Positions 1,416 to 34,271 of a DNA stretch of 34,347 nucleotides are shown here, one piece after another; position 1 is the stretch's first letter; every line of letters starts with the position of its first letter. A model generated the notes under the pieces. The model searched no databases. It was not told the origin of the DNA and worked only from the letters and a program-made list of their open reading frames with translations. The DNA comes from a virus. Where the stretch lies: positions 1-34,347 of the IMG/VR virus record IMGVR_UViG_3300023115_000059. One strand, given 5' to 3'. Made by a program: the position numbers and the translations under genes.

Positions 1416-1416
1416 T

Positions 1417-1791: not shown

Positions 1792-1820
1792 GCACGCCTT
1801 GTATCTGTGTTAATAAAGGT

Positions 1821-15252: not shown

Positions 15253-16407
15253 TCAGACAAGATCCGAAGGCAACGCCGCAGTGTTATCAAGCCCAGTCCA
15301 ACGTGCCATGTGACGCTGACCCTTGACTTCAAAACCGCCTTCAGCGACAAACATGTAGTTGTCCTTGTCGTCGGTCTTAGCAAGTGGCTGCATAACCATT
15401 GGCTGGAACACACGGTAAATCACGTTTTCACGGTTCAAACCGAATGCGTCAGTTGCCTTACAGTAACGGTTGCGAACAAGCAGAACGTCACCAAACTCGG
15501 TGATGACGCTAGTTGCACGACGACGACCACGACGCTCGTCTTCAACAGTTACAGTTTGAATGCGCTCTGCGCCAGCAAGGTTGTTGAGTGCCGCAAAGTT
15601 TGCAGGGTTTGACACAATAGCGGTGAACTGTCCACCTGCGTCGTATGCAACCTGCTGTACACGCTCAACTTCTTCAACCGTCAACCAGTCACCTGATGCG
15701 GCTCCGTTGTATACGTTGCTCGTAATAAACTGTGACACGCCGCCAGTTGCACGAGTTGTGCCTGACTGGTACTTAACACCGTAAAGAAGTGCCTGCTCCA
15801 TGTTGACACCTTCAGCCAACATAACCTTACGAGTCTGACGTGCCAACTCGTTAGCAATACCATACTTCGGAATACGCTGTGCAGTACGACTGATCTGAAT
15901 CTTTGAAGTCCAAATCTGCGTGTAGTTGCTGTACTTGGTACGACCAGTGAACTGTTCGTCACCAATTGAACCTTCAGAAAGAAGCGTACCAATACCAATA
16001 ACTTCTGCGTTAATCAAGTGCGTTGCGGCAGTGGTGCCTGCGGCTCCACGAACAACAGTCAACGTGTCGCCGCTAATTGATGTAACAGTCATAACTTCAT
16101 CGTCAATACGAATCGCGTCACCTGCGGCAAAACGCTCGCCTGAACCTGCGGCAACGTCAACCTCAGTTTCGGTTGCATCAAGTGCTTCACCGGCTGTTGT
16201 CCGTGGCGTAAGGAACTCGTCCTCTAGCCAGTAAAACTCGGTGTTGTCAACAGGCTGACGAGGAACAACAGGGAATCCGTCGCTGTTTACACCGCCAAGC
16301 ATTGGCAGATCGTCAGGGTTAAGCATGTAGATCAACTCATCAATGTTGATCTTTGTTTCGACCGTTAGGTCGTTAGAGTAAATTGGGTTAGCCAACTGTT
16401 CAGCCAT
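15253..16407 (-). CDS. Major capsid protein, HK97 fold (SU10/DUF5309-like)
   Basis: The 384-aa product shows features of the SU10/DUF5309 capsid group: an N-terminal LIYMLNPDDLPMLGG and FYWLEDEFLTPRT, a long central domain (TKYSNYTQIWTSKIQISRTA, LAEGVNMEQALLYG), and a C-terminal beta domain (ADAFGLNRENV-like strand, VEGGFEVKGQRHMARWTGL-like end). Residues about 77-130 are an inserted beta module (ETEVDVAAGSGERFAAGDAI, DDEVMTVTSISGDTLTVVRG, AAGTTAATH), probably a surface or E-loop insertion. GGAGA lies 7 bases before the ATG. The scaffold and a 94-aa protein precede it, and it ends at a strong hairpin, as expected for the most abundant late protein. Confidence 0.88.
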   Translation of the reverse strand: MAEQLANPIYSNDLTVETKINIDELIYMLNPDDLPMLGGVNSDGFPVVPRQPVDNTEFYWLEDEFLTPRTTAGEALDATETEVDVAAGSGERFAAGDAIRIDDEVMTVTSISGDTLTVVRGAAGTTAATHLINAEVIGIGTLLSEGSIGDEQFTGRTKYSNYTQIWTSKIQISRTAQRIPKYGIANELARQTRKVMLAEGVNMEQALLYGVKYQSGTTRATGGVSQFITSNVYNGAASGDWLTVEEVERVQQVAYDAGGQFTAIVSNPANFAALNNLAGAERIQTVTVEDERRGRRRATSVITEFGDVLLVRNRYCKATDAFGLNRENVIYRVFQPMVMQPLAKTDDKDNYMFVAEGGFEVKGQRHMARWTGLDNTAALPSDLV

Positions 16408-17688: not shown

Positions 17689-18723
17689 TTATAGACCAAT
17701 AACCCCTTGCTGTGTCAAGGCGGCTCCACCTTGACCAGCAACATTAATTGCTCCACGTGAAATTCGACGACGTTCAAGTGCATTACGTGCAGAAACATTT
17801 TGATCAAATTCTGCGCTAATCAAATCTGCCTCAGTGATATCAGTTCTTTCACCAACTGATTCCATACTAAGTCCACGACTAGCCGCAACAGTTTGGAACG
17901 TATCATCAATACCTGCTTCAGACATTGGCAACTCACCAATACGTTGCGCTGTTCCTTGATCAACATTAAATCCATAACGTGCGCCAATACCACCCGCATA
18001 CGCTGTGCGTGACGCTCGGTTAATAGACTGAATTGTTTTTTCTGGATCTAGAATGTATGACGCTAACGCACCTTCCGCATCTTTTAGTCCGTAATACTCT
18101 GTGAACTTTTGCATTACTTCAGGCGGAGCATTGCTCACATATTCGTAAGCAACGTTAATACGTTCTTCAATTGCATCAACTGACAAACCACTCATCAAAC
18201 GCCCTTGAATATCTTCAACTGCGTTATCATAAAACCACTCAGGCAAACCAGCACGCCTAAAAGTGTTGGTTAATTGTTCTTCGTATTGCAACAATTCTGA
18301 TGGAGTCCAAACACGAGTAGGGGTTCCTGACGCATTTAAATCTTGTTGAAATTTAATTAACGGAAAACGTTGTTGGAACGTATCTGTTTCTTGCAATCCA
18401 ATTAACAACTGCTCAACGCTAGTCACACCATTTTTTACTTGTTCCCACAACCACCCACCGGGGGTGTCGCCTGTCATAGTGAACAAATCACTTAAACCAA
18501 TTGAACTTAAATATGAAGCCAACGTTTTAAAATCGTTTAACGCAGGCGTTGTATCTTCATCTTCTACAGGTGTTGGATCTACTGGCCTTGGAATAGAAAT
18601 TCTATCGCTAGGATCCCAATCTTCTGGAAGCGGATCGCCTCGTTTCCAACCGTCAAACTCTGGCGGTTTAGGCCCTTTACCCCACGGCGGCAAACCTTTA
18701 TCTGGCACTCTTACAGGTGGCAT
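17689..18723 (-). CDS. Probable internal virion protein, 344 aa
   Basis: The N-terminal 55 residues are Pro-rich and charged (PPVRVPDKGLPPWGKGPKPP), the rest helical. Two segments, FRRAGLPEWFYDNAVEDIQG and ARYGFNVDQGTAQRIGELPM, resemble the about 40-residue repeat of the adjacent 433-aa protein, so the two probably share ancestry. The ATG overlaps the upstream stop as TAATG. No enzyme motif is seen. As part of the block between giant protein and scaffold, it is a candidate ejected core protein; a portal-associated structural role is an alternative. Confidence 0.65.
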   Translation of the reverse strand: MPPVRVPDKGLPPWGKGPKPPEFDGWKRGDPLPEDWDPSDRISIPRPVDPTPVEDEDTTPALNDFKTLASYLSSIGLSDLFTMTGDTPGGWLWEQVKNGVTSVEQLLIGLQETDTFQQRFPLIKFQQDLNASGTPTRVWTPSELLQYEEQLTNTFRRAGLPEWFYDNAVEDIQGRLMSGLSVDAIEERINVAYEYVSNAPPEVMQKFTEYYGLKDAEGALASYILDPEKTIQSINRASRTAYAGGIGARYGFNVDQGTAQRIGELPMSEAGIDDTFQTVAASRGLSMESVGERTDITEADLISAEFDQNVSARNALERRRISRGAINVAGQGGAALTQQGVIGL

Positions 18724-20024
18724 TAGAAACCTCTCAATCCAAACAGGTCTGCAACAGCAGACGTAACACTAGCCATAGACGAACGAGCCGCATCAGTAGA
18801 TTGCCAACGCACATCATTACGACCTGCTTGAGCAATTTCCGTTAACGTAGCCCCACGAGTCACACCATTCTCGTTAACAATCATCATGTCTCTAAACACC
18901 GGATCATTAATCAAATCAATATCGCTACTATTCATTTCCAATGTTTGTGCAAGGTATTCTTTAGATGGCGCAAAATAATCTGCTGGTGTAACACCTTGAT
19001 CAATCAAATCAGACATCCAAGCAAACTGTCCTTTAGCCTGATTTTTAAACATTGACTGAATACCAGCATCATCTAACTCTCCACGCATTTGCCGTAACGC
19101 CATATCCAAAGATTGTTGACTTGACACTGGCAACAAATATGCGGCACCACTTACCTCAATAGCATCTTGCAATGCTGTGACCGTGCCTTGTTTAAACGCA
19201 TACGTTGAGTCAATGCCCTCAAACATTGCTGATTGCAACTGTTGGTCAGAAAAATTTTGCAACGTTGCTTGTTGCGCAATTTCATTAATGCGTTCATCAG
19301 ACAACGTTAAACCGTATCGTTCAGCGTTTGCACGAATGTTTTCTTTATTAGTTTCATATGTTTGAACATTTCCGCCAACATTAATTAACGGTGCGTATTC
19401 TGAGTTTGCGTTAATTGCTAACTGTCGAATCTGTTCTGTAACGCCTTCTAACGTAATATCGCCACGTGCAACGTTTAACGCCAAACTGCGGGCAGTACCT
19501 TCATCTAAATCAAAATTGAATTGTTGTGCGGTTTCACGTAACGCAGTCGCCGCCGCTGTTAAATTGCCGACACTAACGGTAGACGGATCAACGTCAACTA
19601 AAATGTTGTCAATAAGAAGATTGTTATCCCAGTTTTCATTGACTGCGGATTCTGCTAAAGAATTAATTCGGTCTTCAGTTACGGCAATACCAAATTGTGA
19701 AAATGTGTCTCGAAGAGATGCAACAATGTTGGCTTTGCGTTGTGCTCTGCTTACTCCGCTACCGCCACTTGTACCAATGATGTCTTTGGTTTGGAGCAAT
19801 AAGGCTTGGCCACGTGGATCCCCAACTAATTGAGAGTTGAGCCAATTTAAACCACGTTCAGGACGTGTAACATATTCTTCAACTAGTCCTCTCGCCCATT
19901 CGTCGTTAGCAAGTGGAGTAAAATATGGGTTGTATTGACTTAAAAAATCAATTGTTTGTTGTATGTTGTATTCTGTTTCTACACCAGCAACTTCGCCGTA
20001 GTAGTCATTAGTAAAATTAGTCAT
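18723..20024 (-). CDS. Probable internal virion protein with 40-aa helical repeats
   Basis: The product is 433 aa, all helical, with three visible copies of a repeat: 103-142 (LRDTFSQFGIAVTEDRINSL), 161-202 (LRETAQQFNFDLDEGTARSL) and 230-270 (IRANAERYGLTLSDERINEI), each followed by a second helix with hydrophobic spacing. The N-terminus (YNIQQTIDFLSQYNPYF) and the C-terminus are unique. It overlaps the upstream gene by 8 bases with its own GGAG. The repeats suggest an elongated or multimeric structure. The family is not recognised and the internal or ejected role is inferred from position. Confidence 0.68.
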   Translation of the reverse strand: MTNFTNDYYGEVAGVETEYNIQQTIDFLSQYNPYFTPLANDEWARGLVEEYVTRPERGLNWLNSQLVGDPRGQALLLQTKDIIGTSGGSGVSRAQRKANIVASLRDTFSQFGIAVTEDRINSLAESAVNENWDNNLLIDNILVDVDPSTVSVGNLTAAATALRETAQQFNFDLDEGTARSLALNVARGDITLEGVTEQIRQLAINANSEYAPLINVGGNVQTYETNKENIRANAERYGLTLSDERINEIAQQATLQNFSDQQLQSAMFEGIDSTYAFKQGTVTALQDAIEVSGAAYLLPVSSQQSLDMALRQMRGELDDAGIQSMFKNQAKGQFAWMSDLIDQGVTPADYFAPSKEYLAQTLEMNSSDIDLINDPVFRDMMIVNENGVTRGATLTEIAQAGRNDVRWQSTDAARSSMASVTSAVADLFGLRGF

Positions 20025-21120
20025 TGCCGAACGCTCCTCTAAACATGTCGCTTGTCAAATCTGGTGGAGCCAGCGGGTCTGAACTTCGTATACTTCCCGG
20101 TCTCCAATTCATTAAATCCATTACTGCATTGTTTTGAGAAAATTCTTGAATTTCAATAGGTAACATTTGTTGCAACGCACGAATTGCATCTGCTTCCATA
20201 TTTGGTGTTTCACCTTCAACAGCAAACAAACGTTGTTCTTCCTCATCAAACTGTGTCACTGTGTCTAACACACGTTGCAACTCGCTTTCTGAAAGATTAC
20301 GACCCAACAACGACTGACTCACATTGTTAATCATCATTCCAGTATTAGGAGTGTTACGAGCAACCCACTTATTTAACTCGTCAAGATTGGCTTCAACTTT
20401 ACTTGTAAGTTGTGTAGCAATATTTGTGTCGTTAGATAAAACATCTCGCAACAACATGTCCCATGCCCGTTGCAGATACGGGCTAGACGGGTCTGTAATG
20501 GGTGCCGCCGTGCCGCCTGCCGCCCGAATGTAGCCACCTAACTGTAATTTGTTGACCATTTCTTTAAGGCCATCATCAGTCAAATAATACGGAAGTTGAC
20601 GGATTTCAGAAATACTCATGCCGTCAGCCATGATGTCCCAATATTGTTCGTCAACCCATTGACCTTCGTTGCTTGCAACAATCTGTCCGCCCACTGTTTC
20701 AAACGCTTCAGGCGAAAAAATATTGAAATTAACTGCATCAAGAATGTCTTGAATTTCGTAGTCTTGTGCCGCAACAGTGCCACTTGGAGTATTTACAAAA
20801 GCAACTTGGTTAGATATAAACCCCTCAAGCCCTGATTCAACAAATTGTTTATATTCGTCTAAGGCATCCATGAAGGATGCATTAGTGCGGATAATCCAAA
20901 CAAAATCTTGACCTGTAAATTTTTCCCAGTCGTATGTAATACCGGAAAGATTTGTTGTAGTAGCCGTATTGTTTGTTGTTGAAGTTGACGGTTGAACCGT
21001 AGTTGAAGTTGTTGTTCCAGTTGACTGCGGCGGCATTGACCACGTTGGTGGCATAGTTGTTTGTGTGGCACCAGTCGGTGGGTTCATGCCGGGAGGAGTA
21101 GGCGTGTTGCGAATAATCAT
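20017..21120 (-). CDS. Probable internal virion protein with Pro/Thr-rich N-terminus
   Basis: The first about 58 residues are a disordered Pro/Thr/Ser stretch (TPTPPGMNPPTGATQTTMPP and more), followed by a mainly helical domain (WIIRTNASFMDALDEYKQFV, WVDEQYWDIMADGMSISEIR, SQSLLGRNLSESELQRVLDT). The protein is 367 aa. Its ATG overlaps the giant gene's TGA (ATGA), so production is tied to the giant protein. No catalytic motif is evident. The LSESELQRVLDT helix is similar in style to the repeats in the next gene. Assignment is positional. Confidence 0.65.
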   Translation of the reverse strand: MIIRNTPTPPGMNPPTGATQTTMPPTWSMPPQSTGTTTSTTVQPSTSTTNNTATTTNLSGITYDWEKFTGQDFVWIIRTNASFMDALDEYKQFVESGLEGFISNQVAFVNTPSGTVAAQDYEIQDILDAVNFNIFSPEAFETVGGQIVASNEGQWVDEQYWDIMADGMSISEIRQLPYYLTDDGLKEMVNKLQLGGYIRAAGGTAAPITDPSSPYLQRAWDMLLRDVLSNDTNIATQLTSKVEANLDELNKWVARNTPNTGMMINNVSQSLLGRNLSESELQRVLDTVTQFDEEEQRLFAVEGETPNMEADAIRALQQMLPIEIQEFSQNNAVMDLMNWRPGSIRSSDPLAPPDLTSDMFRGAFGND

Positions 21121-24100
21121 CTGATACTACTTTCTGGCTTGTAAATTGATTTCCAAAGCATTTCAATATCTGGATTCATCAATGCCCATTCCTCACCAAA
21201 CGCTTCAAACCTGTCATCAAGTGCTTGGCGTTCCTGAGCAGACCTAGACGAATTACCTGTGATACGTGAACGACTAAACTCGTAAATATCAAACTCTTTA
21301 CTTAGCGAATAAATAGCACCAAAGTATTCAGATTCAATTGGATCAGTCATGTTTACAAGTTCACGGATGTCTGTGATTGTGCGTTGACGTGACGTGCGTC
21401 CGTTTGATTGTTCAAGCATTTCAGTGAACAACGGATGCGTAATTTTAAAATCTTTAATTTCTTGTTGGTGTTCTAACACCAAACCTGCTTGTTTGTTATC
21501 TCGACCAATCGCCGCTAATAGTTCTTTTTCATGGCGGTCAAGCATGTCGTAATATTCATACGCATCTGTTTTAAAAATCAACGCCTCATAAAACTCATCG
21601 CTGTCAATACGTTCACGCAAACCGTTACGCATAATTTGATTCCACACATACGCTGACGTTTCAATATCGTTGTTGTATCCTTGATTTGGAACAAACCATG
21701 ACACACCGTCTGGATACTCTGTCAACAAAGCATCATTGTTTGTGTAAAACTCCCATGCTTGTTCAGTTGCAACAATTGGTCCTGTAACTTGGCGTTCTGT
21801 TCCGGCAACAAGGAACGCTAATGGATTAATAATTCCATATTCTGTTGCTGTCGGGTTGTCCCGCACGTAACGGTAAATGCCTTCGTCGTATCCAAACGTG
21901 CTGACATAATCTCTGAACTGTTGAGTGAACACGTCTTTGATATCGACTTGCGAAATACTTGACAAAATTCCGTCATCGTCTTTTTGTCCAGCAACAGAAA
22001 GGTCAACTGTGCCGGGAACAGGGAACACTGTGTTGATGAAGAAGTTTGCAAACAAAGCGATGCGTGCGGCATTGCGTGCTTCATTCATAAAATCTTCTCG
22101 GTCTTTAGCAGTTGATCCTTCACCGGGGAACGAGCCGTCAGCAACAGCGTATTGTGCGAAGTTATTGAAGTTTGATGTTAAACCGATGCTCATATGTTCT
22201 GGATCAACTAGCCCGTACACACTGTTTACTAATTTTGCTAACACAGGTGGCAGAACTGTTTCGTGTAAGCGGCGGGTGGCTCCGAGGTCGCCCATAAGAT
22301 TGCGGCGTAATGGTTGCAACTCTGGGAAAATGTTTGACGCAAGTGCCATTGGGAATGCACCTAATGGCCCGAACTGTGGTTCGCCAACACGACTGTTGAA
22401 ACCGGGAAGCAAATTATCTAGACGTGATTTGCCCATCAAGTTGACATCAGTTTGATCCATTCCAAACAAACCTAAGAATGTTCCTACTGCTCGGTGTACA
22501 AGTCCTGATCCGGGTATAGCAATCCAGTAGTCACCGTTAGGATCTTCAGTAATGATGCCTGCTTCACGGAAACCGTTGAAAATTAATTGTGCTTGGTGAA
22601 TGTCTCGTAATAAGAAGTCGTCGGATTCGCCAAAAATTTTAACCCATCGTCTGTAGAAGTTTGATTCCGCATAGTGGAACGGCATCAATGTGTTTACTTT
22701 GTTTGCAAAAATTGTGCGTTCTCTTGGATCGTCAATGTAAGGGATGACGCTTGCAATTGCTTCTTCTGATGCAATGTCTTTTTGACGGCCAATATGGTTG
22801 CGTGCAGAAACAAGAATTTCTCCGAGTTCTTGCATGTCTTCTAATGTTCCGTCAATTGCGAAATCTACGTCGTTCACAATTTGGTATGCCGGTGTGCCAT
22901 CAAGTGTTTTGTTGCGCAAGATTCGTGTGATGTCTTCGGCACTTAACTGGCCTTGTTTGAGTTGCAACAAGTACACGTCGGGTACAGCGTCGAACAATTC
23001 ATCTAACACAAATACGCTTTGATGTTCGAGGTTGCTAAAGGCTTCAGTCAAAAAGTCTTTTGCTTTGTTGCTTGTAGCCGAGGTGCCATATCGAATGTTG
23101 CGTGATGCAATTGTGCTCATGCGTACATCCATAAACGAGTCAGCAATGCTCAACCGGACTGGTAACGCTGTTACAAATCCGTGCATTGCTTGCGGTGTAC
23201 GGCTTAAAGAATCAATTGCTGGTCCAAAAATTTCGCTAAACGTTTTTGAAATCATTCGTTCAATCAAATTTTTGTCATTAACAACTTCGGTAAGCCGACG
23301 GCCAATAACTACGCCGGGACGATCAACTGGGTCTACGTTATAGATGTCTCCTTGACGGCTGAACGTGTAACGAGTTAATGAACTGTCACTAGACGAGAAC
23401 ACTTCGTTTTGACCCATGACACGAGCGTCAACACTGCCAATCAATTGGCTGTTTGTAAGATCATCAAAGTTGTCTAGCAACACTGGTCCAACGGTTTGCC
23501 ATTGAATTTCTTTTGGTTTTGATACAACTTCTTCAGCAAAAAATTGTGGGTCACCAAGATTGATTGGATCGCCGTTTCTATCAAACAATTTGTCTGTGAA
23601 TTGGAACTCTGAATCTGGTGGAACTTCTTCTAGTTCGCCTGTCAAGGTGTTTTTGCGGAACACTTTGAGTTCTTCAAGTTCGTCTGGTGTGAGTGGCCCG
23701 TAGCCGCCTGAAGGTGCTACTTGGTATCGTGGCCGGTAACGAGTGTCTGTGCCTTTCATGATGACTTGTTCGACTCGTTCAACACCTTGTTGTGCGTATT
23801 CTAAAGTGGCACGTGGCCGTGATACACCTAATACTGCTCCGTTACCTTGAGGATAAACGGGTCCAGTTAAATTTTGCCATGAATCAACTGACGGAGTATC
23901 AAAATAAAATGTTTGTCCAACAGTTGTTGGTTTGTTAGAGCGAATAACGTTTCCTGCAATTGCTACTTCTGTTTGGTTACCTGTTCCTGCCCAACGTGGA
24001 ATCACTGTTGAATAGATGCTTGCTACTTTGCCTTCATCTAACACAGAACGACTGAGTACGTCTTGTACGAACAATGCTGTGCGAGGATCTGTTAATCCAA

Positions 24101-27100
24101 TTGTTGGGACAAACCAGTTTCCGGGCATGTTGTACAATTGTCCGGCATCAAACCTTCGGAAAATGTCGCCAACATATTCTGTGACAACTTGACGCAAATC
24201 ATCAATGTTGCTTGCGTCTAGCAAAAATCCTGTTGATTTGTGTGCTTCATAGTTGCCAAACAATTTTGTGACTACGTTGTCAACAATTTCGTCAAAATGA
24301 TCTTCAACGTTAGGGAATAGTTGACGTGAGGCTTCCCATTCTTTTGCTAAATATTTTGGTTCAACCAAAGAAACAGTAAACAAACGTTTTTGATACGGGT
24401 TGTAACTGTCCGCTACGTGATAACCGTTAAGTGTTTCAACCATAAACTCTGAACGGTTAATTTGATCAACGTTGTATGGTGCGTAATAATCTGCAAATAC
24501 TGCGTCAACCAAATTTTCTCGTGCCGCATCGTCGTATCCTGCATGAACTCTTCCGGTTTCTCTCGGCAAATATCCGTACACGCCACGTTCTGCACGACTA
24601 ATTGACGACGGGTCTAGCCATCCCATAGTTCCAAACGAACCAATTACTTTGTCACCAAATGTGTGCTCGGCTATTAAACCTGCAAGATAACGCTGATTAT
24701 AAATGCCTTGCTGTCCAGAAAGATTTCCGCCATCGACAAAAGGAATTGATGTTACTGGTGATTGATAGCCCGTAGTGTACAGTGCTGGTCGATCACCAAG
24801 AACGTTTTGCACTTGTGCTATAGACGCTTGCCTATACGGTCCAGCCGCAACTGTAGGCATGTCTTCTCCAAACACAGAAATTGTGTATGCCGCTCTTAAA
24901 GCATCTGTGTCTGACCCAGTTAATGTATCAGTTAACCAATCCTCCATTTTGGTATCAAATTGCTCAACTTGTAAATCGTCAATTAAACGATGAAATTTTG
25001 GATCAAGCAAAATTTCATTTAAATAATCAAATTCTTGATGTTTAAGATTACCGACAACCCAGTCAACAAAAGTATAATGACTGTCATTTCGACCCATCAA
25101 GAAACCGCCGCCGCCATTAAAGCCTTCTCTTATTTCTGATGTTAAATTGGTTGCCTCTTTTTGAAATTGTAAACGGACTAACTCTTTTAGTTCTGCGTTG
25201 TTTGTAGGACCGCTAGTTCTATTGATAACACCGTAATTTTTACTTGATCCACTGGGGCTGTATTTAACACGTGCGCCGCCTCCGAATGTCTGTGGAGTGG
25301 TTTGTGATGCAAAAATGCGCCACGCTTCTTTTCCGTATGTTTCTTCAAACGCATCCCAAATATCGTTAAACAATACGTCTACAATTTCTTCAGTACTCTG
25401 ATTTGCACCTTTTAATGTTGTAACATAATTTTCGTACTCATCTACAAGATCATCGAAGATTTCAAATGGTCCACCGTTTTCAGGTGTGCCTTGTAAGTAT
25501 CGTGCCAAAATAGGATTACGGCGTTCCAACGCATCATAAAAATTGGCTGAGTATGGAGTAACATTTGTTGTATGAAACTTAGATGCAATCTCATCAAGAC
25601 GATTTGTTAATGCAGACCGCAACATAGTAATGCGTTCTTCTGTTTGTGCATTAAAAAAGTTTTCAAAAAAGTCTAATTCAAGATTCCCAGTTGGTCCTAG
25701 AAGGTCTTGCATTTCCTCTAATGTTAAATCAAAATCTGCCAACATGCGTCTCAAAGAACCTTGACTGTCAAGAGCCGCATTAAAAAATGGGTCTGACAGC
25801 GGATTGTCAATAGTCAATTCAGAATCTGGTAAACGCCGCCACGTTCCCGGAGGCATAACTACTTCGATTACATTTGTTGATCCGAAAGCAATTTCGTGTT
25901 CCCGTCCTGATCCATTGCCTCGTGTCATACGGACAATAATGTCATCAGTCCCAAGCGCACTTTTGTCGGCAACGCTTACGCCGTCAGGTATATTACCAGT
26001 CGTATAATATGGTGCAGGCGCTTGATCAATAAGATCGTCCCAAGTTGGAGCATTGTTAAATTGGCTTGCAAGCGCATCAAAATCTAGTTCGTAAACAATG
26101 CCTTCAAGTCCACCTAATTGAGCATTGCGCCCAACAGTAATTGGAATACCAGCATAACTAAAAGTTTGTGTTTTCGATAGCGAAGTTGAAATAGCCCTAT
26201 AAGGATCGTTCCAATGATCTTGCGGTTGCAATGTCATAATAAGATTGCCGTTTTCAACACGAATAGCAGGTTCAACTGCAGCACCAAACGTCAACCCTGT
26301 GTTGATATTAGGTGTAGCACGATAAACAACTCGTGGTGCAACCTGTGGCATTTCTAAACCAGAACGTGGATTGACACCTACATTTAACGGATTGAGTGGA
26401 CCAGCAAGAGGTGCTTGATTCCACGGGTTTGCATCAATGTAATCAATGATGTCGTTACCAAAATACGGGCGGTTGTATGCAGTTAGATAGGCTGATTGCG
26501 CACGGTGAGACACAAGGAGATGCATAAAATCGTCTTGACTCAATGTGCCTGCATCCATAGCGGCTCTGATCTGATTGCTTAAACGAATGTTTTCGTACAG
26601 TTTGGCTTCTTCAGCCAACCAGTTCACTCCACCAATTTTACGGTTTTGTGCATCAATTACTGCGTTACGTAATTGCTGTTCTAGTTGTGGTGGGAGATCA
26701 GTAATGTCAGTAACAACTGCACCGCCGCTACTGTAATGAACCTGCCGGAACCACTCGTCAAGCACATCGGCGTATGCGCTATACACAGGATGTATGTTTT
26801 CTCCGTCAAGGCGAAGCCCGTCAATCAACACTCGTACCGAATCATCTTGCGCATAATTCATGTGGACAAACACTCGGTTTGATAACGGAGTATCTGCTGT
26901 AACTGACCGAACAACTTGTGTCCATAGCCCTTTATCCCAATCTGGATTAGATGGGAAATAACGTGGAATAGAATCTGTTAATACTTGACTCATTGTTGTG
27001 TCACGAACTAGAACACGTTGCAATTCGTCGTGTGCCGCAAACCCATACATCAATTCGTCTTGAACAGTAAACCGTTCAAACTCGTTGCCAACTTGCACCA

Positions 27101-30100
27101 ATGGTGTAGCCATAGCCTCACCATTTTCATAAACAGTAAGACCAACTGTTGATTGTCCAATTTCAGGTGCAAACATTGAACGGTTGTTAGCACTTAATGC
27201 TTCCATGATTGCTCGTGAATTACGATGCACATACTGTTGCGCTCCATACATCAAACGAGCATTTACTCCTCGTGCCGCTACACGTCGCCACGAATTTTCT
27301 TTACCAGCAAGCAAAGTTGTTGCCAATTCGTTTTTAACACTTAACTTGCCAAGCCTGCTTTTACCAACTAGCCCTGCCCCACGTTGCGCTAACTCTGGTG
27401 AAATACCATGCTCAAACACGCCACGAACCCAACGTTCCATTGTGTCAAGCGTAGAACCAACAACACTTCCGCCTATTGCTTCCCATTTATGAATTTGGTT
27501 ATTAACAAAACCTCGTCCACCTTTTTTAAGTATTGCTCTTTCAGCAGACGTTAACGCAGGTGCTAAACCGTATTTTGTTGCTTTTTCTGCTTTTTGAACA
27601 ACACGCAAATATTCGTTGTAGTTCTGTACTTTTCGTGCGCCGTAAGATGCAACAAGTTCAAGATTCGCTACACGGCTAAAGAATGCTAACAATTCTTCGC
27701 CGCCGTTACGAGGGATATATGCGCCACGCAACAAGACAAGTGGTCGCCAGTACTTCATTGCGTTCTGCTCAAGAATTTTTGCGCCATCAGCCAACATCAA
27801 ATGGTCGCCTAATGCCGCAATACGTTGCGCTCTAATAACCTCGCTAATATCAGGCACAACAAAATCAATTGCTTGATCAAGACCCAACACGCCACGAGGC
27901 ACAGTCTTGGTGCTATTAGTTACTGAACGTGCCTGATCAATACGGCCTAGCCCATACCCTGTAAACAGCCGGTCAAACTCGTCATACACTTGTCGTCCGG
28001 CTTTGCTTGACGTAAACCCTGTTGCATCAAACAATGTGTCATAAAAGGCTCGTAAAATTCTGGCTCGTGCCGCAACGTCACCAGTTGACATGATTTGATT
28101 CAACCATGTATTTGTAAATGATTTAGGCAAACCCATAACAGATCCGATTGAGTTGACTGCTCGGTCAATGCCTTCGCCTGTCACAAGGTTAACTGCTCCT
28201 CGGTTTGCCATAATTGAAACCGAGTCCATTAGTTTGCCAAGTGTGCCACCAGTAGCACGGTTTATCCAAGCAAATTTGCGTCCAACAATTTCTCCCGGCA
28301 AACCAATAAGACCAGTTGTTGCTTCTTCTGAAATGTCAAGAAGTCGTCCGTCAAGCAACAGTCCTTCAATGTTTTCTGGATTAAATGAAACGAGTTCTTC
28401 ACCTGATTCTGCCAACACATTATTGATATTGCGCATAGAAACAGGATCAGTAAAAGCGTTTCTGAAACCTAAAAGATTGTTTCGTATTGCGGCACGTACA
28501 CCGACGTTGCGTTGTGGAGCAAACATCAACATTCCGTGTGCTCCACGTTTCAAACCAATACCTTCACGCAACAAATGCGAATTAATTTCTTCACCAAAAA
28601 ATTCAATAACGTGGCTATTATCAAGTTCTTTTAATGGCTGATACGTTTTGCTCATGTAACCTTTAGCAACAGCCCAATCTCTAAACGGCTGATACACTTG
28701 TCGAAGATTCGGCACGACATCCGTGTAACGTCCAGCAACAGCGGCGTTAACAAAATCAGTGTGCGCTCGTCTTACTTGACGGTTAGTTTGAGCAACATGG
28801 ACAAAACGCTCTTTGCTAAATGTGCGACCACTTTCAACGCCGAGTCTTCTGAAACGAGAATACGAAACTGCTGGTGCAACTAGGTTTGCAGGATCAGCAA
28901 ACCATCTCCATGTAGCATCACCTAAACCAGAAACAAAACCATATGCTCTAGTTCCCGGTGTCAAAAACAAACCGTTAGCCAAGCCACGACCGGGACTGTA
29001 TTTGCCTTGTTGTAACAACCGAACAGCCTGTTGGAACTCAGGGGCTTGCAACAAGTTGTCAACTTCTACTGCAAGTTGATGATACTCTCTTGTGTTCCGC
29101 TCGTAAAACTGTTCAGCGTACGCTTGAGTTTGCATTAACTGAACGCTTTGTTGGTCAGCGTTACGAACACCTGCAAAGTATGCGGCAAGTTCATAAGGGT
29201 CAACGTTTTGACCAATAGAGTCAGCCAAATAATAAATATCTGAATGATTTAATAGTTCTTTGGCTTGAGCAATTGCGGCTGGGTTAAACAACTTTTCGCC
29301 GTCAGCGGCACGCCGCCAATTCTCAACATATTGGTTTTCGTTGCCAGTAACAGCGGCAATAACTGTTTCGCCAGTCATTGCGGCGATGTTGCCTCCGGCT
29401 AAACCAGCCAATGTTGCAAATGTAGCGGCGGCACCTAAACCTGCTAATGATGAACCAAACGTTGGACCAGCAAGTGCAACAGAAGCAACAGCAGTAGCGG
29501 CGGCGGCAGTCCAATATAAAGCGGCTTTCCATCCGTCAAACTGTGCAAGAGTACGATATCCACGATTAACTGTTTCGCCCGCAAACTCTAACCCTTTAAG
29601 AACGTTACCGCCTGCCCATGTTAGACCTTTGCCGACAACAGGAACACCGCCAACAAAATCACCAACTGCACCCAAACCTTTCATAAACCAGTTTTTGCCT
29701 GCGTGGTCTGCGGCTTCAAGGTCATATCCTGATTGCACAAGTGCTTTCTGTTCACTTGTTGTGAGTTGATCAAACACAACTCGTTGATCGCTTGGTGCTA
29801 AACGTTCAATAGCAGTACGCACTTGGTCTGTCGTTGTGTACTGTTCAATAACTGAAACACCATTAGCCAAATCAATAATGTCAATGTCTTCTTGAGCAAT
29901 TTGAAATAACAAATCTTCGTTCGCTTGCCAAAACTTTGGAGCGACTTCTCGCATCACATCAACTTTGTATTGGATCTCTCCGGCTTGATTAATAGTAGAT
30001 TCTAGATCGCTCCACGGATCGCCACTATTACTGCCGACAAGATCAGGGGTGTACCCTGACCTGCGATTGTTGTATTCACTTCCAATAAAATTCGGTTGAT

Positions 30101-30113
30101 CAGTAAACGTCAT
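21117..30113 (-). CDS. Giant (2998 aa) virion protein with ADP-ribosyltransferase-like module
   Basis: This gene fills a quarter of the window and is coupled by ATGA on both sides. Residues about 143-178 are Gly-rich amphipathic and about 195-258 are a long Ala/Gly hydrophobic stretch (AAAATAVASVALAGPTFGSS and on), suited to membrane insertion during DNA entry. Residues about 1262-1425 match the R-S-E ADP-ribosyltransferase pattern: R1265 in VVYRATP, S1309-T-S1311 in RAISTSLSKTQTFS, E1405-H-E1407 in GREHEIAFGST. Most of the remainder is helical, with a hydrophobic segment near 2690 (ALFANFFINTVFPVPG). No lysozyme motif was found. Best reading: an internal or ejected protein, analogous in role to T7 gp16 or polyvalent ejected proteins, carrying an effector enzyme. 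The ART assignment is moderately sure. Confidence 0.75.
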   Translation of the reverse strand: MTFTDQPNFIGSEYNNRRSGYTPDLVGSNSGDPWSDLESTINQAGEIQYKVDVMREVAPKFWQANEDLLFQIAQEDIDIIDLANGVSVIEQYTTTDQVRTAIERLAPSDQRVVFDQLTTSEQKALVQSGYDLEAADHAGKNWFMKGLGAVGDFVGGVPVVGKGLTWAGGNVLKGLEFAGETVNRGYRTLAQFDGWKAALYWTAAAATAVASVALAGPTFGSSLAGLGAAATFATLAGLAGGNIAAMTGETVIAAVTGNENQYVENWRRAADGEKLFNPAAIAQAKELLNHSDIYYLADSIGQNVDPYELAAYFAGVRNADQQSVQLMQTQAYAEQFYERNTREYHQLAVEVDNLLQAPEFQQAVRLLQQGKYSPGRGLANGLFLTPGTRAYGFVSGLGDATWRWFADPANLVAPAVSYSRFRRLGVESGRTFSKERFVHVAQTNRQVRRAHTDFVNAAVAGRYTDVVPNLRQVYQPFRDWAVAKGYMSKTYQPLKELDNSHVIEFFGEEINSHLLREGIGLKRGAHGMLMFAPQRNVGVRAAIRNNLLGFRNAFTDPVSMRNINNVLAESGEELVSFNPENIEGLLLDGRLLDISEEATTGLIGLPGEIVGRKFAWINRATGGTLGKLMDSVSIMANRGAVNLVTGEGIDRAVNSIGSVMGLPKSFTNTWLNQIMSTGDVAARARILRAFYDTLFDATGFTSSKAGRQVYDEFDRLFTGYGLGRIDQARSVTNSTKTVPRGVLGLDQAIDFVVPDISEVIRAQRIAALGDHLMLADGAKILEQNAMKYWRPLVLLRGAYIPRNGGEELLAFFSRVANLELVASYGARKVQNYNEYLRVVQKAEKATKYGLAPALTSAERAILKKGGRGFVNNQIHKWEAIGGSVVGSTLDTMERWVRGVFEHGISPELAQRGAGLVGKSRLGKLSVKNELATTLLAGKENSWRRVAARGVNARLMYGAQQYVHRNSRAIMEALSANNRSMFAPEIGQSTVGLTVYENGEAMATPLVQVGNEFERFTVQDELMYGFAAHDELQRVLVRDTTMSQVLTDSIPRYFPSNPDWDKGLWTQVVRSVTADTPLSNRVFVHMNYAQDDSVRVLIDGLRLDGENIHPVYSAYADVLDEWFRQVHYSSGGAVVTDITDLPPQLEQQLRNAVIDAQNRKIGGVNWLAEEAKLYENIRLSNQIRAAMDAGTLSQDDFMHLLVSHRAQSAYLTAYNRPYFGNDIIDYIDANPWNQAPLAGPLNPLNVGVNPRSGLEMPQVAPRVVYRATPNINTGLTFGAAVEPAIRVENGNLIMTLQPQDHWNDPYRAISTSLSKTQTFSYAGIPITVGRNAQLGGLEGIVYELDFDALASQFNNAPTWDDLIDQAPAPYYTTGNIPDGVSVADKSALGTDDIIVRMTRGNGSGREHEIAFGSTNVIEVVMPPGTWRRLPDSELTIDNPLSDPFFNAALDSQGSLRRMLADFDLTLEEMQDLLGPTGNLELDFFENFFNAQTEERITMLRSALTNRLDEIASKFHTTNVTPYSANFYDALERRNPILARYLQGTPENGGPFEIFDDLVDEYENYVTTLKGANQSTEEIVDVLFNDIWDAFEETYGKEAWRIFASQTTPQTFGGGARVKYSPSGSSKNYGVINRTSGPTNNAELKELVRLQFQKEATNLTSEIREGFNGGGGFLMGRNDSHYTFVDWVVGNLKHQEFDYLNEILLDPKFHRLIDDLQVEQFDTKMEDWLTDTLTGSDTDALRAAYTISVFGEDMPTVAAGPYRQASIAQVQNVLGDRPALYTTGYQSPVTSIPFVDGGNLSGQQGIYNQRYLAGLIAEHTFGDKVIGSFGTMGWLDPSSISRAERGVYGYLPRETGRVHAGYDDAARENLVDAVFADYYAPYNVDQINRSEFMVETLNGYHVADSYNPYQKRLFTVSLVEPKYLAKEWEASRQLFPNVEDHFDEIVDNVVTKLFGNYEAHKSTGFLLDASNIDDLRQVVTEYVGDIFRRFDAGQLYNMPGNWFVPTIGLTDPRTALFVQDVLSRSVLDEGKVASIYSTVIPRWAGTGNQTEVAIAGNVIRSNKPTTVGQTFYFDTPSVDSWQNLTGPVYPQGNGAVLGVSRPRATLEYAQQGVERVEQVIMKGTDTRYRPRYQVAPSGGYGPLTPDELEELKVFRKNTLTGELEEVPPDSEFQFTDKLFDRNGDPINLGDPQFFAEEVVSKPKEIQWQTVGPVLLDNFDDLTNSQLIGSVDARVMGQNEVFSSSDSSLTRYTFSRQGDIYNVDPVDRPGVVIGRRLTEVVNDKNLIERMISKTFSEIFGPAIDSLSRTPQAMHGFVTALPVRLSIADSFMDVRMSTIASRNIRYGTSATSNKAKDFLTEAFSNLEHQSVFVLDELFDAVPDVYLLQLKQGQLSAEDITRILRNKTLDGTPAYQIVNDVDFAIDGTLEDMQELGEILVSARNHIGRQKDIASEEAIASVIPYIDDPRERTIFANKVNTLMPFHYAESNFYRRWVKIFGESDDFLLRDIHQAQLIFNGFREAGIITEDPNGDYWIAIPGSGLVHRAVGTFLGLFGMDQTDVNLMGKSRLDNLLPGFNSRVGEPQFGPLGAFPMALASNIFPELQPLRRNLMGDLGATRRLHETVLPPVLAKLVNSVYGLVDPEHMSIGLTSNFNNFAQYAVADGSFPGEGSTAKDREDFMNEARNAARIALFANFFINTVFPVPGTVDLSVAGQKDDDGILSSISQVDIKDVFTQQFRDYVSTFGYDEGIYRYVRDNPTATEYGIINPLAFLVAGTERQVTGPIVATEQAWEFYTNNDALLTEYPDGVSWFVPNQGYNNDIETSAYVWNQIMRNGLRERIDSDEFYEALIFKTDAYEYYDMLDRHEKELLAAIGRDNKQAGLVLEHQQEIKDFKITHPLFTEMLEQSNGRTSRQRTITDIRELVNMTDPIESEYFGAIYSLSKEFDIYEFSRSRITGNSSRSAQERQALDDRFEAFGEEWALMNPDIEMLWKSIYKPESSIR

Positions 30114-30526
30114 TTGTTGTGCCTATTCATCATTTCTGCATACAACGGATCGCCAGTAATTTTGAACATGGCTTGTAATACTTTAATGCTCGGTTTGTAA
30201 GCGGCACGTTGACGTTCAAAAGGTTGAGGCATACGACCGGGACCAAACGGCATACCTGATGTAGCGGGACGTGTATCGTTACCACCTAACAAGTTTGTTG
30301 GCATTTGCTGTAACGCCACCATAGGGTCAACAGGTACTCGTGGCATTGCTGGTTGTTCTGATGATGCAGTTTGTTGCACAGGAGGAACAGCATTGTTTTG
30401 CATGTCAGGAGCAGGCATTGCTTCTTGCATAGCGGCTTGCTTCACACCTTCGCCATACCGTTGTCCCGGCACAGACTTTACTGCTTGTGCATCTTCACCA
30501 CTCAACGTTTTCTTTTTACGTGGCAT
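30110..30526 (-). CDS. Pro/Met-rich protein between portal and giant genes
   Basis: The product is 138 aa. It has a basic N-terminus (MPRKKKTLSG), a long disordered Pro/Gln/Met-rich centre, and a C-terminal helix pair (YKPSIKVLQAMFKITGDPLY, AEMMNRHNK). It starts in the portal stop (TAATG) and ends in the giant start (ATGA). Its composition resembles the portal's own C-terminal tail. It may be a portal-associated plug or core component; no family is recognised. Confidence 0.65.
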   Translation of the reverse strand: MPRKKKTLSGEDAQAVKSVPGQRYGEGVKQAAMQEAMPAPDMQNNAVPPVQQTASSEQPAMPRVPVDPMVALQQMPTNLLGGNDTRPATSGMPFGPGRMPQPFERQRAAYKPSIKVLQAMFKITGDPLYAEMMNRHNK

Positions 30527-32403
30527 TATCTACCACCCATCCCAGACTGCATCATTTGACGCATCTGATCTCCTTGTGTTGGTTGCGGTTGCGCTTGTTG
30601 TGCTTGCAAAGCGGCCATTACTTCTGGCGGAATTGCGCCAGCCGCCGCCGCTTCAGGACCTGCCGCCAAACCCATTTGGGCTTGTGGCGACATCTGTTGT
30701 TGCATAGCCATTTGTTCTTCCATTGCCGCTTGTTGTGCCGCCATCTGTTCTTCACGTACTTCTTCGTCAACCGCAACAGTCGCCGCAAAAATATCCATTG
30801 ATCCGTCCCGCATTTTTTCACGGATACGTGCAAACACAGACATCGGCATTTGTCCAGAAACAACTTGTTGCAACAAACCGTTTACTGCACCCTTTTCAAG
30901 TTTCTCATCAGTAATACGTGTTTGTTCAGAATGAGGATCTTCAATCCACGGATGATGACGTTGGAATGTTTCCGAACTAATAGTTTCAGAACCCAACATC
31001 GAACCAAGAACCTGAGTGATCTGAATAATGTCAGCACCCGGAATAGCATAAGTAACAGTGTTATCTGTTGTTTCAATCACTTGGTTAGGTACGAACTCTA
31101 CCTGTCCACGATCACCTGACCAGCCACTAAACAACGTGTACTTCTTGTCACCCCACCATGCTTTATAACAGTTAAGAATTGCTTCATTAACTTTTGGCAT
31201 CCACACTTCGTCGATCTCATGTACCTCTTGGATACGTGGATCAACAGCAAAGTCAGCCATCTGGCTGAGCGCACGTCCTGTACGCAATGCGGCTCCCGGT
31301 GTTTCGCCACCAAACATTGGAGACAACCCTGAAGATACACGGAAGTTACGTTCAAGCCGGTCAATCATTTGTGATGTGCGAACGTCTGGCATTTGATTAA
31401 TGGTGCCAATGCGTTCAGCGTCAGTGACAATGTTTATTTCGCCGTCACGTCCGTCATGCCATTGACCGTCCATCAATCTTGGTGCAGAGCCACGTGAACC
31501 CATCACATACATGTCAGGGAACACAGCCTTTTCTTGTGCCAACATGTCAAGCGCCAGCAGTTTAGATTGCCATTTAGCGTTTTCTAGCAACGCATTCAAG
31601 CGGTTACCGATACGATGAAGAGTGACTGCGCCGGGAGTTACAGCAAGGCATTGTCCTGTCAAGTTAGGTAGCGGGTCGGTCAGTGGCATCCACGGTCCGC
31701 CAAACCAACTGTAATTACGGTTGATGTGGTTTCCGTCTGCTTGTACTGGTCCGAGCAAACCGAATCTGATTTGTTCTCGGTCTACCCATTCAAATACGTC
31801 CCAAAGTTCTGTAGTGTCAACGTCAGCAATTGGTCCGCCTAGTTCGCCACGTACTGCTGGGAACCTGTTCCGTAGGTAATCACCTGAGTATCGTGTAATG
31901 AACGCTACGTATTCTGGTGATTCCATTGACTCAAGAGCACGTTCTTCGGGGAATGTTTGTAGCGGGTCACGTACTCGAAGACGTGGCATACCTGTACGGA
32001 AGTCTGGTTCAACCATTAAAGACGCAGTATCGTAAGCATTAAGGTGTCGCATGTATCTACGACGCAACAAACCCCATCCGTTTTGATGGTAGGTTGCTGA
32101 AAGAATCCTGCGACGATCTGTAGCCAGTGCTTTACTACGTACTCCAGTTTCTTTGTATGGATCTAATGCAGGTGAAAACACGGTTGGTTTCACACTTGCG
32201 GCTCGCATTGCCAATCCATCTACTACATCTGTAATAAGAGATGGCGTAAGGTTAGGCATGTCAGGTTCGTCAGCAACATCAGGCATAGGAATAATGACAT
32301 CTGCCTCATACGAGTTGCGGATCTCTTCCATCTTTCGCAACACAGGAGAACGCCGATTTTGCAAATCAATTGTCATTTGCCGTATTGTGTCAAAATCTCT
32401 CAT
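30526..32403 (-). CDS. Portal protein
   Basis: The 625-aa product follows TerL and has the general form of phage portals: an N-terminal helical region (TIRQMTIDLQNRRSPVLRKM), a NLTPSLITDVVDGLAMRAAS segment, RDPLQTFPEERAL, a wing region, then FRVSSGLSPMFGGETPGAAL and TGRALSQMAD, typical of the clip and stem region. The last about 80 residues are Gln/Met/Ala-rich and disordered (AAQQAAMEEQMAMQQQMSPQ and on), possibly a barrel or internal tail. It forms the 12-fold DNA gate in this class. The gap to TerL is 8 bases. Assignment rests on motifs plus gene order. Confidence 0.85.
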   Translation of the reverse strand: MRDFDTIRQMTIDLQNRRSPVLRKMEEIRNSYEADVIIPMPDVADEPDMPNLTPSLITDVVDGLAMRAASVKPTVFSPALDPYKETGVRSKALATDRRRILSATYHQNGWGLLRRRYMRHLNAYDTASLMVEPDFRTGMPRLRVRDPLQTFPEERALESMESPEYVAFITRYSGDYLRNRFPAVRGELGGPIADVDTTELWDVFEWVDREQIRFGLLGPVQADGNHINRNYSWFGGPWMPLTDPLPNLTGQCLAVTPGAVTLHRIGNRLNALLENAKWQSKLLALDMLAQEKAVFPDMYVMGSRGSAPRLMDGQWHDGRDGEINIVTDAERIGTINQMPDVRTSQMIDRLERNFRVSSGLSPMFGGETPGAALRTGRALSQMADFAVDPRIQEVHEIDEVWMPKVNEAILNCYKAWWGDKKYTLFSGWSGDRGQVEFVPNQVIETTDNTVTYAIPGADIIQITQVLGSMLGSETISSETFQRHHPWIEDPHSEQTRITDEKLEKGAVNGLLQQVVSGQMPMSVFARIREKMRDGSMDIFAATVAVDEEVREEQMAAQQAAMEEQMAMQQQMSPQAQMGLAAGPEAAAAGAIPPEVMAALQAQQAQPQPTQGDQMRQMMQSGMGGR

Positions 32404-32411
32404 AAATTTGC

Positions 32412-34271
32412 CTACACTCTTCGCATCCCTGCTGGCAATAACAGTCCGCTTTTTGTTGCCTTATAAGGCATCGCTTCTCGTCGCCAGTTATTTGTATTTG
32501 CTTTACCGCTACTTGGTTGTTTCCACCGTTCTCTCCACATAATCCAACAAAACCACAACGCCATTACCCTGTCTTGTCGCAATCTGTTGCCACGAACTCC
32601 CGGCTTCCACGCATACAACTGCCGACAAAGTTCGTCTATTTCAAATCTTGTATAAGTATCGTCACAATATGGTAACACAATCTCTTGTTTTCTAAAAGAT
32701 TCCGCCATAGACGGCACACCAATATCTGGATCATATTTGTTCCAGCCAGTCAAATGATCTCGAATTGCAAAACCCCAATAGTCACGTAGTTCTAAAAGGT
32801 TCTCGTCGTAAATAAGACCTTTCTGAAACGCCATTGCTTCAATAACTACGTCAGTTACTTGCGCTCCACCTTGCGAACAATAGTCAATTGTTTGTGCAAG
32901 CCGATCAATAATTTGACTGTTTGTTTTAAAGTCAATGTCTTCAATAATGCGACGCACAATCAATTTGTGATCAGGTGTTGCTTCAACTGCAATAATGCAG
33001 TTCTTGCCGCCCAACGCAGGGTCAATCCCGATATAGACAATACTGTGTTCTGACGGTGTATGAGTGAGCGAAATGTCAGAGTTTTTGCAAGGTTCTACTG
33101 CTTCTTTATCAAACGTGCCACGCCCACGGCTAGATACACCGGGGTTCTGCATGTAGTTTCTGTCCCATGCTTCTGCCCCAACCTTTTTCTTTTGGCGTTC
33201 AAGTTTGTCTAACGGCCATTTTTCTGGCCACAACGACTTTTCTTCACCTGTATCGTGATCTGTAATGATTGCTGGAAACCGCAATACCTTCATAATGGAC
33301 TGATCAAGGTCAGGATCATCCATCAATGTTTCATAAAAATCGCCTTCTGCAACACGCGTACCACAAACTGTAGTGATCCCGGTTTCGCCGGGACGTGACA
33401 ACAAGTCCTGACGAAACCAATTAACAAACTTGTTGGTTTGTGCAATGGTGTTTGTTGATTGGATATCGTCTACATGGGCATGATCAGTACGTGTAGACAC
33501 AATGTTTTTTGATCCTGCGCCTACAGCAAGCATTGAATAGTCACGTTCATCGTTTTTGCGTGCGCCACGTACACTAAAACGCACATCAGACCATGCTTGT
33601 CTCGCACGACCGTCACCTGTTTGTGGCATAAACGGACCGAAACGGCTCACATACTCAGGTGACGGACCGTTCGGATCCATACGATCCATGACACGACCAA
33701 GAATTTTTTGTGCAATCGACTTAGATTCTGATGCTACAAGAAATCTGTATGAAGGATCTAATGCTAATTTGCGACTGGCATGATCTTCAAACGTTGTTGT
33801 TTTACCAAACTCTGGTGGCCACAACACCATAAGAATGTTTCCGGGCGGCGTTTTTTCTAGTTCGCTAATAAACATCAATTGGAACCATGTTGGTATATGC
33901 CCAAAAAACGAACCAACAAAAGAAGCGGCGGAGCCGTCCCAACCTGCTGTGCCTCCCATTTGAGCAAGAGCACGAGCCTCGTCACATTTAGCGGCAAACT
34001 GTGGGTAACGTTGCCGGTATGATGCGTATGTGTAGTAAGTGATTCCTTCGAGTTCGCAGGCTTCGCCTACAGATTTTTTGCCACGTAAATGCGTAATAAT
34101 GTTTCTGCGGCGTTGTTCTGCTTGTGCATGTCCTCTGTGGTTGCCAGCAGGTTTGACGATTTCTTCGTATGGTTCTGCTGGTTCTGCTAGTTCAATGTCT
34201 TTTGTTGCTTGTTGAATTTCGGCAAGAAGATCACTGATTAAAGCAGGGTCGTCAATACGTTCGTCGGACAT
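32412..34271 (-). CDS. terL: Large terminase subunit with N-terminal HTH
   Basis: The 619-aa packaging motor has a Walker A at 152-159 (PPEFGKTT, K157), a Walker B-like D268-D269 in HVDDIQS, a coupling segment (TVCGTRVAEGDFYETL), and an RNase H-like nuclease starting with D417 in YIGIDPALGG, continuing VVIEAMAFQKG and LPYCDD. Residues about 60-100 hold an extra helix-turn-helix-like domain (LRGKKSVGEACELEGITYYT, YASYRQRYPQFAAKC), a type more often found in small terminase subunits, and no separate TerS gene is seen. GAGGTG lies 3-8 bases before the ATG. The second acidic residue of Walker B is Asp rather than the usual Glu. Confidence 0.92.
   Translation of the reverse strand: MSDERIDDPALISDLLAEIQQATKDIELAEPAEPYEEIVKPAGNHRGHAQAEQRRRNIITHLRGKKSVGEACELEGITYYTYASYRQRYPQFAAKCDEARALAQMGGTAGWDGSAASFVGSFFGHIPTWFQLMFISELEKTPPGNILMVLWPPEFGKTTTFEDHASRKLALDPSYRFLVASESKSIAQKILGRVMDRMDPNGPSPEYVSRFGPFMPQTGDGRARQAWSDVRFSVRGARKNDERDYSMLAVGAGSKNIVSTRTDHAHVDDIQSTNTIAQTNKFVNWFRQDLLSRPGETGITTVCGTRVAEGDFYETLMDDPDLDQSIMKVLRFPAIITDHDTGEEKSLWPEKWPLDKLERQKKKVGAEAWDRNYMQNPGVSSRGRGTFDKEAVEPCKNSDISLTHTPSEHSIVYIGIDPALGGKNCIIAVEATPDHKLIVRRIIEDIDFKTNSQIIDRLAQTIDYCSQGGAQVTDVVIEAMAFQKGLIYDENLLELRDYWGFAIRDHLTGWNKYDPDIGVPSMAESFRKQEIVLPYCDDTYTRFEIDELCRQLYAWKPGVRGNRLRQDRVMALWFCWIMWRERWKQPSSGKANTNNWRREAMPYKATKSGLLLPAGMRRV

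What the first reader, a model, noticed from the sequence alone, without database searches (positions are those of the whole stretch)
25850..26340. R-STS-ExE ADP-ribosyltransferase-like module buried in a 2998-aa phage protein
Seen: R1265 in VVYRATP, STS at 1309-1311 followed by an aromatic FSY, then E1405-x-E1407 in REHEIAFGSTNVIEVVMPPG, the same order and local context as clostridial-type (C3/VIP2/MuF-linked) transferases. Known: ADP-ribosyltransferases occur in some ejected phage proteins (T4 Alt) and at least one freshwater actinophage was reported to encode an AB-toxin ADP-ribosylating part. Inference: the enzyme is carried in the virion and modifies host (or predator) targets at once on infection. 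The STS-to-ExE gap of about 95 residues is longer than usual, with an insert (GGLEGIVYELDFDAL).
Basis: partly seen in the sequence, partly recalled or inferred. Interest (0 to 1): 0.85.

Follow-up and report, generated by a model that had tools for sequence, protein, structure and literature searches.

The report
ADP-ribosyltransferase-like module in phage ejection-type protein
A probable actinobacterial virus carries, in the middle of a 2,998-residue protein that it probably injects with its DNA, a module that resembles enzymes some phages use to modify host proteins; near-identical viruses carry very different versions of the whole gene block, with or without this module.

Summary
Alone it is weak (77 of 2000 shuffles hold such a pattern); relatives make it credible. 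The protein belongs to a family (2321-3073 aa) encoded between portal and capsid genes; nine lineages carry a homologous module in a variable central slot, others lack it. The family profile matches T4 ModA/ModB (Arg on Arg, SxS on SxS; ranks 1-2 of 63 T4 proteins; 0 of 150 column shuffles), and a model of the sister module L006 retrieves ADP-ribosyltransferase-fold chains for at least 30 of its top 31 PDB hits, none below E=0.001. The window's own model is too weak to test this. Corrections: E1405 is unique to this phage; E1407 is shared by all nine lineages, but the ModA/B alignment puts the canonical Glu on E1417; the supposed insert is a conserved core strand; two relatives have Met for Arg, so some members may be inactive. 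Phages with 96-99% identical portals carry giants only 28-33% identical, with or without the module. Virion carriage, activity and target are inferred, not shown.

The parts
21117..30113 (-). giant 2998-aa protein gene
   Evidence: ORF; relatives of 2321-3073 aa at the same place between portal and capsid genes
26844..30002 (-). conserved N-terminal backbone, residues about 38-1090
   Evidence: BLASTP to L006, L007, L008, L009 and others, 23-29% identity
29391..29525 (-). Ala/Gly-rich hydrophobic stretch, residues 197-241, candidate membrane-active segment
   Evidence: hydropathy; Ala/Gly-rich consensus in the family alignment
24534..26816 (-). variable central region (cargo slot), residues about 1100-1860
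   Evidence: about 600 aa shorter in L008, L009, L031, L036, L045
25794..26396 (-). ADP-ribosyltransferase-like module, residues 1240-1440
   Evidence: nine-lineage alignment, ModA/ModB profile match, fold hits of the sister module
26319..26321 (-). R1265 (Arg of strand 1)
   Evidence: Arg in 7 of 9 lineages, Met in L007 and L034; aligned with ModA/ModB Arg
26181..26189 (-). S1309-T1310-S1311
   Evidence: S-x-S (S-F-T in L032) in all nine lineages; aligned with ModA SAS
25893..25901 (-). E1405-H1406-E1407
   Evidence: E1407 matches, in a hand alignment, a Glu present in 9 of 9 lineages; E1405 only here
25863..25865 (-). E1417, rival catalytic Glu in VIEVVMPPGTW
   Evidence: hhalign places ModA EQEVMIPAG on VIEVVMPPG; Glu in 3 of 8 lineages, Asp in 1
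21132..24521 (-). conserved C-terminal backbone, residues about 1865-2994
   Evidence: BLASTP to relatives, PF[WH]YAE-type motif
30110..30526 (-). small gene (138 aa) at the edge of the exchanged block
   Evidence: homologues 43% identical between L007 and L009 while the portals are 96%
17689..21120 (-). three further genes of the block (367, 433 and 344 aa), candidate ejection proteins
   Evidence: homologues of the second and third 41-48% identical between L007 and L009, the first without a match, while flanking genes are 96-98%
30526..32403 (-). portal protein
   Evidence: weak SPP1 portal / phrog_64 portal matches; used to find relatives
32412..34271 (-). terminase large subunit
   Evidence: phrog_38, 5e-43
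15253..16407 (-). major capsid protein, SU10 type
   Evidence: PF17236, 3e-50
3687..3974 (+). WhiB-like gene, marker of an actinobacterial host
   Evidence: PF02467, 1.2e-15

Best explanation
The module is an R-S-E type ADP-ribosyltransferase-fold domain, distantly related to T4 ModA/ModB, carried as optional cargo in the central slot of a giant ejection-type protein of a probable short-tailed actinophage. Most likely the protein sits in the virion with the products of the three next genes, goes into the host with the DNA, and the domain then binds NAD and transfers ADP-ribose to a host factor at once on infection, as T4 Alt does. Shown: sequence anatomy, homology among the phages, optional presence, divergence of the gene block against near-identical flanks. 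Supported but not proven: the fold and the kinship to ModA/ModB. Inferred: virion carriage, ejection, catalysis, host target.
For: Module homologous in nine lineages at the same slot; L090 was found by a profile built without it, E about 1e-9. Profile-profile match to ModA/ModB homologues, score 40.4, probability 84.5% one way and 31% the other, 0 of 150 column shuffles as high; ModA and ModB rank 1 and 2 of 63 T4 proteins; the part without the Glu segments also beats all 150 shuffles (28.6 against 18.6). AlphaFold model of the L006 module pTM 0.68; 30 of its top 31 PDB hits are ParT, RES/MbcT, diphtheria-type, SAIP or PARP chains. Gene order portal - small gene - giant - 3 genes - scaffold - MCP, and the five-gene block diverges together against 96-98% identical flanks, as the ejection-protein cluster of P22-like phages does (PMC10883804). 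The module evolves faster than the backbone (dN/dS about 0.6-1.0 against 0.18-0.24, one pair). Precedents: T4 Alt; ARTs in head-packaged and polyvalent proteins (PMC9503650, PMC5512222).
Against: No Pfam, PHROG or PDB sequence hit. No fold hit below E=0.001; the window's own model (pTM 0.61) gave no meaningful hit, only RES toxins among weak ones, and a viral fold library gave weak mixed hits. Arg is Met in two lineages. The canonical-position Glu is Ser/Thr in four of eight. T4 Alt itself ranks only 6. The Glu segments in the profile were placed by hand and long inserts left out. No proteomic evidence for the virion.
Confidence: 0.55

Rival explanations
1. A degenerate ART fold kept as a binding or structural module of the ejection protein, without catalysis.
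For: Arg to Met in L007 and L034; only this phage has ExE; the canonical-position Glu is lost in several lineages; dN/dS in the tail near 1.
Against: A Glu can be matched in all nine lineages in a hand alignment, the first Ser of SxS in all, the Arg in seven; the window and L006 keep R, STS and both candidate Glu residues.
Confidence: 0.25
2. An ART-fold enzyme that consumes NAD or modifies a small molecule or metabolic enzyme, like RES or ParT toxins, rather than a ModA-like protein modifier.
For: RES toxins are among the best-TM hits of the window model and ParT, MbcT and RES among the top hits of the sister model; a relative's slot (L078) holds a cpYpsA SLOG domain, a fold linked to NAD-derived signals.
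Against: Motif order is R-S-E, and sequence profile similarity is to ModA/ModB.
Confidence: 0.12
3. A toxin aimed at eukaryotic predators (Trojan horse), as proposed for VIP2-like genes of freshwater phages (PMC6802176).
For: Such genes have been reported in freshwater phages, some of Actinobacteria.
Against: Here the module is inside a giant ejection-type protein next to portal and capsid genes, with no secretion or translocation part seen.
Confidence: 0.03
4. Chance motif in a non-ART protein.
For: About 4% of shuffles hold the loose pattern; no library hit.
Against: Conservation in nine lineages, ModA/B register, ART-dominated fold hits.
Confidence: 0.05

Closest known systems
T4 ModA/ModB (and virion-borne Alt)
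   Same: R, S-x-S and strand order; phage ART acting on host proteins; Alt is carried in the head and injected
   Different: very low sequence similarity; here embedded in a 3000-residue protein; ExE not kept in the family; Alt itself does not score above background
ART in the N4-like vRNAP of Roseovarius Plymouth podovirus 1 (polyvalent protein, PMC5512222)
   Same: ART inside a giant virion protein of a short-tailed phage
   Different: that one is the H-Y-D class joined to an RNA polymerase; here R-S-E order and no polymerase or protease domain found
MuF-ART and other head-packaged Alt/VIP2-type ARTs (PMC9503650)
   Same: ART linked to a virion-associated protein near portal and terminase genes
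   Different: no MuF domain found; central, not terminal, position; no VIP2 family hit
Ejection proteins of P22/T7-type podoviruses (PMC8954989, PMC10883804)
   Same: gene cluster beside structural genes, highly mosaic and exchanged while neighbours stay conserved
   Different: much larger protein with an optional enzyme-like cargo; no homology detected by the libraries used

Membership tests
ADP-ribosyltransferase superfamily (R-S-E type) | Arg in strand 1 | tested here: met
   R1265 aligns with ModA/ModB Arg and lies in a predicted strand; Met in two relatives
ADP-ribosyltransferase superfamily (R-S-E type) | S-x-S motif on a strand followed by a helix | tested here: met
   STS 1309-1311 in strand 92-97 of the model, then helix 100-108; S-x-S or S-F-T in all nine
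ADP-ribosyltransferase superfamily (R-S-E type) | catalytic Glu on the later strand | tested here: inconclusive
   two candidates, E1407 (matched in 9/9 by hand) and E1417 (canonical spacing to PPG)
ADP-ribosyltransferase superfamily (R-S-E type) | ART fold | tested here: inconclusive
   sister module: ART chains dominate the hit list but none below E 0.001; window model uninformative
ADP-ribosyltransferase superfamily (R-S-E type) | R, S and E in one pocket | not testable with these tools
ADP-ribosyltransferase superfamily (R-S-E type) | NAD-dependent activity | not testable with these tools
   needs an assay
C3/VIP2-type family | match to a Pfam family model | tested here: not met
   no Pfam family at E<=10 for the window module or any of nine members
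Polyvalent / MuF-ART proteins | linked MuF, MPTase, ParB, RNAP or other known polyvalent domain | tested here: not met
   no Pfam or PHROG domain in the giant
Podovirus ejection proteins | encoded beside portal/capsid genes and diversifying as a set | tested here: met
Podovirus ejection proteins | present in the virion and ejected | not testable with these tools
   needs virion proteomics

The most novel reading that the evidence does not exclude
These phages keep a pool of interchangeable ejection gene blocks whose giant protein has a central slot for injected effectors (ART-like, SLOG, unknown), so that otherwise near-identical phages deliver different effectors at the moment of entry, much as polymorphic toxins swap their tips.
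Probability: 0.35. Interest if true: 0.75.

Novelty: new variant of a known kind. Interest (0 to 1): 0.5.

Why it matters
If right, it adds an ART-like effector that family libraries do not see to the probable virion proteins of aquatic actinophages, in short-tailed-type phages where ARTs are rare (3% of podoviruses, PMC9503650), and shows that the whole ejection block differs between near-identical phages, with or without the effector. That offers a natural comparison for what an injected ART does at entry.

Tried and rejected
Pfam, PHROGs and PDB sequence searches of the giant and the module: nothing. Close-relative scans with the module or giant alone returned only one 100% identical contig; a first portal-alignment scan added nothing and was replaced by the portal core; a scan of prokaryote genomes gave one distant locus. 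Fold search with the window's own model: no significant hit. Fold search in the viral library: weak and mixed. MAFFT did not align the Glu segments across members, so these were placed by hand. Streptomyces Beephvirinae gp9 lies at the same place but gives only a weak 76-column profile match (P 6e-4), so it is not claimed as homologous; the ct2KA10 giant is homologous and has no match to the module. No toxin of a listed germ was fetched as a yardstick; T4 ModA/ModB were used instead.

Full report
Observation. The window is a 34,347-base virus record. A loose form of the pattern is found in 77 of 2000 shuffles of this long protein, so the motif alone proves little.

Setting. Upstream on the same strand are a terminase (phrog_38, 5e-43) and a portal (weak matches); downstream are three proteins without known function, a small candidate scaffold protein and an SU10-type capsid protein (3e-50). 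No long-tail genes were recognised; a short tail is inferred from gene content. A WhiB gene (1.2e-15) points to an actinobacterial host (PMC10202952).

Relatives. Portal-based scans gave about 80 loci. Complete giants in the portal family nearest the window are 2321-3073 aa. They share about 1000 N-terminal and 600-1100 C-terminal residues, mostly at 23-29% identity with the window, while the centre varies from about 510 to 1220 aa. A Y[RM]...G[NDS]...S[TMF][ST]....Y...E module sits in the centre in nine lineages: the window, L006, L007, L027, L029 (with L025 and L028), L032, L034, L039 and L090. A scan of 51 records with the profile found only the L090 and L028 copies. Several records are fragments and may hide others.

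Active-site residues. Arg is kept in seven lineages and is Met in L007 and L034; the first Ser of S-x-S is kept in all. A Glu followed by a hydrophobic strand (xE[ILF]x[ILF]) can be found in all nine (window E1407), but the residue two before it is Glu only in the window. This column was placed by eye because MAFFT did not align it. A second candidate is E1417 in VIEVVMPPGTW, which matches the ExEhhhPxG spacing of ModA (EQEVMIPAG); it is Glu in the window, L006 and L034, Asp in L032, and Ser/Thr in four others. Which Glu is catalytic is open.

Homology to ARTs. Before any hand-placed Glu segment was used, the profile A8 aligned with single T4 ModA and ModB sequences with Arg on Arg and S-x-S on S-x-S (P 0.035 and 0.024), ranking 4 and 1 of 63 T4 proteins, Alt 19. 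The hand-assembled family profile against a ModA/ModB alignment gave score 40.4, probability 84.5%, E 7e-6 one way and 31%, 5e-4 the other. Column shuffles reached at most 23.1 in 150 tries; for the part up to the YELD region and its helix alone, 28.6 against 18.6; ModA and ModB rank 1 and 2 of 63, Alt 6. The tail segment was chosen after its likeness to the PxG turn was seen, so the full score is somewhat favoured; the core result is not.

Structure. The window module with nine sequences: pTM 0.61, pLDDT 58.6; R1265, STS and E1407 each in predicted strands, STS followed by a helix. Its PDB search gave nothing significant; RES toxins had the best TM-scores among weak hits. The more compact L006 module: pTM 0.68; of its top 31 PDB hits, 30 are diphtheria-type, ParT, MbcT/RES, SAIP or PARP chains, and the first, VPA0770, is to my knowledge an ART-type toxin too; best E 0.019, probability 0.84, none below 0.001, TM-scores mostly 0.1-0.5. 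Many are repeat chains of one protein, diphtheria toxin above all. This is consistent enrichment, not a confident single match. The viral library was uninformative.

Divergence of the block. L007 and L009 have 96% identical portals and 98% identical capsid proteins, but giants 28% identical; the small gene before the giant is 43%, and of the three genes after it the first has no match and the others are 41% and 48%. L025/L029 and L031/L045 have 99% identical portals and giants 32-33% identical, the former with and the latter without the module; nucleotide identity of 94% ends just before the giant. Recombination is the simplest reading. On a backbone tree the module needs 4 gains or losses, at least 3 by well-supported branches; long branches make the window's own place unsure. 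L078 has a cpYpsA SLOG domain in its central region, outside the backbone that it shares with L075, L080 and L083. For the one pair tested (L027-L025) dN/dS is 0.24 and 0.18 in the backbones, 0.63 in the R-to-SxS core and 0.8-1.1 after it, where the alignment is poor.

Mechanism. Ejection proteins of short-tailed phages form a conduit and are highly mosaic; [quoted passage not shown] PMC8954989). Gene position, co-divergence and an Ala/Gly-rich hydrophobic stretch fit this role. The most likely action is NAD-dependent modification of a host factor on entry, as with T4 Alt. ARTs packaged in heads or polyvalent proteins are known (PMC9503650), including one in a podovirus vRNAP of the H-Y-D class (PMC5512222). 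The present case differs in its R-S-E order, its carrier protein, its invisibility to family libraries and its optional presence in a divergent block. An inactive, binding-only ART fold is the main rival; escape from superinfection exclusion could drive block divergence without any role of the ART.

Noticed in passing
L007/L009, L025/L031: A five-gene block (small gene, giant, three genes) is diverged to 28-48% identity (L007/L009) between phages whose flanking genes are 96-98% identical.
   Followed up: yes
L078, giant residues about 1381-1540: cpYpsA SLOG domain (PF12694, 1.5e-25) in the central region of a distant giant.
   Followed up: partly
window 1369-2351 (+): Gp3-like recombination directionality factor (PF18897) split over two ORFs in different frames: profile 2-97 in 1369-1791 and 111-190 in 1821-2351; a frameshift or an assembly error.
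   Followed up: partly
window 10630-11007 (+): Small SLT transglycosylase-like gene (PF01464, 1.2e-6) on the strand opposite to the structural genes.
   Followed up: no
window 5757-6836 (-): Putative secreted protein with a long Thr/Ser-rich repeat, no Pfam hit.
   Followed up: no
one giant of alignment A7 (L055-L090): Helix-hairpin-helix matches (PF12836, 1.5e-13) in one distant giant; not located.
   Followed up: no
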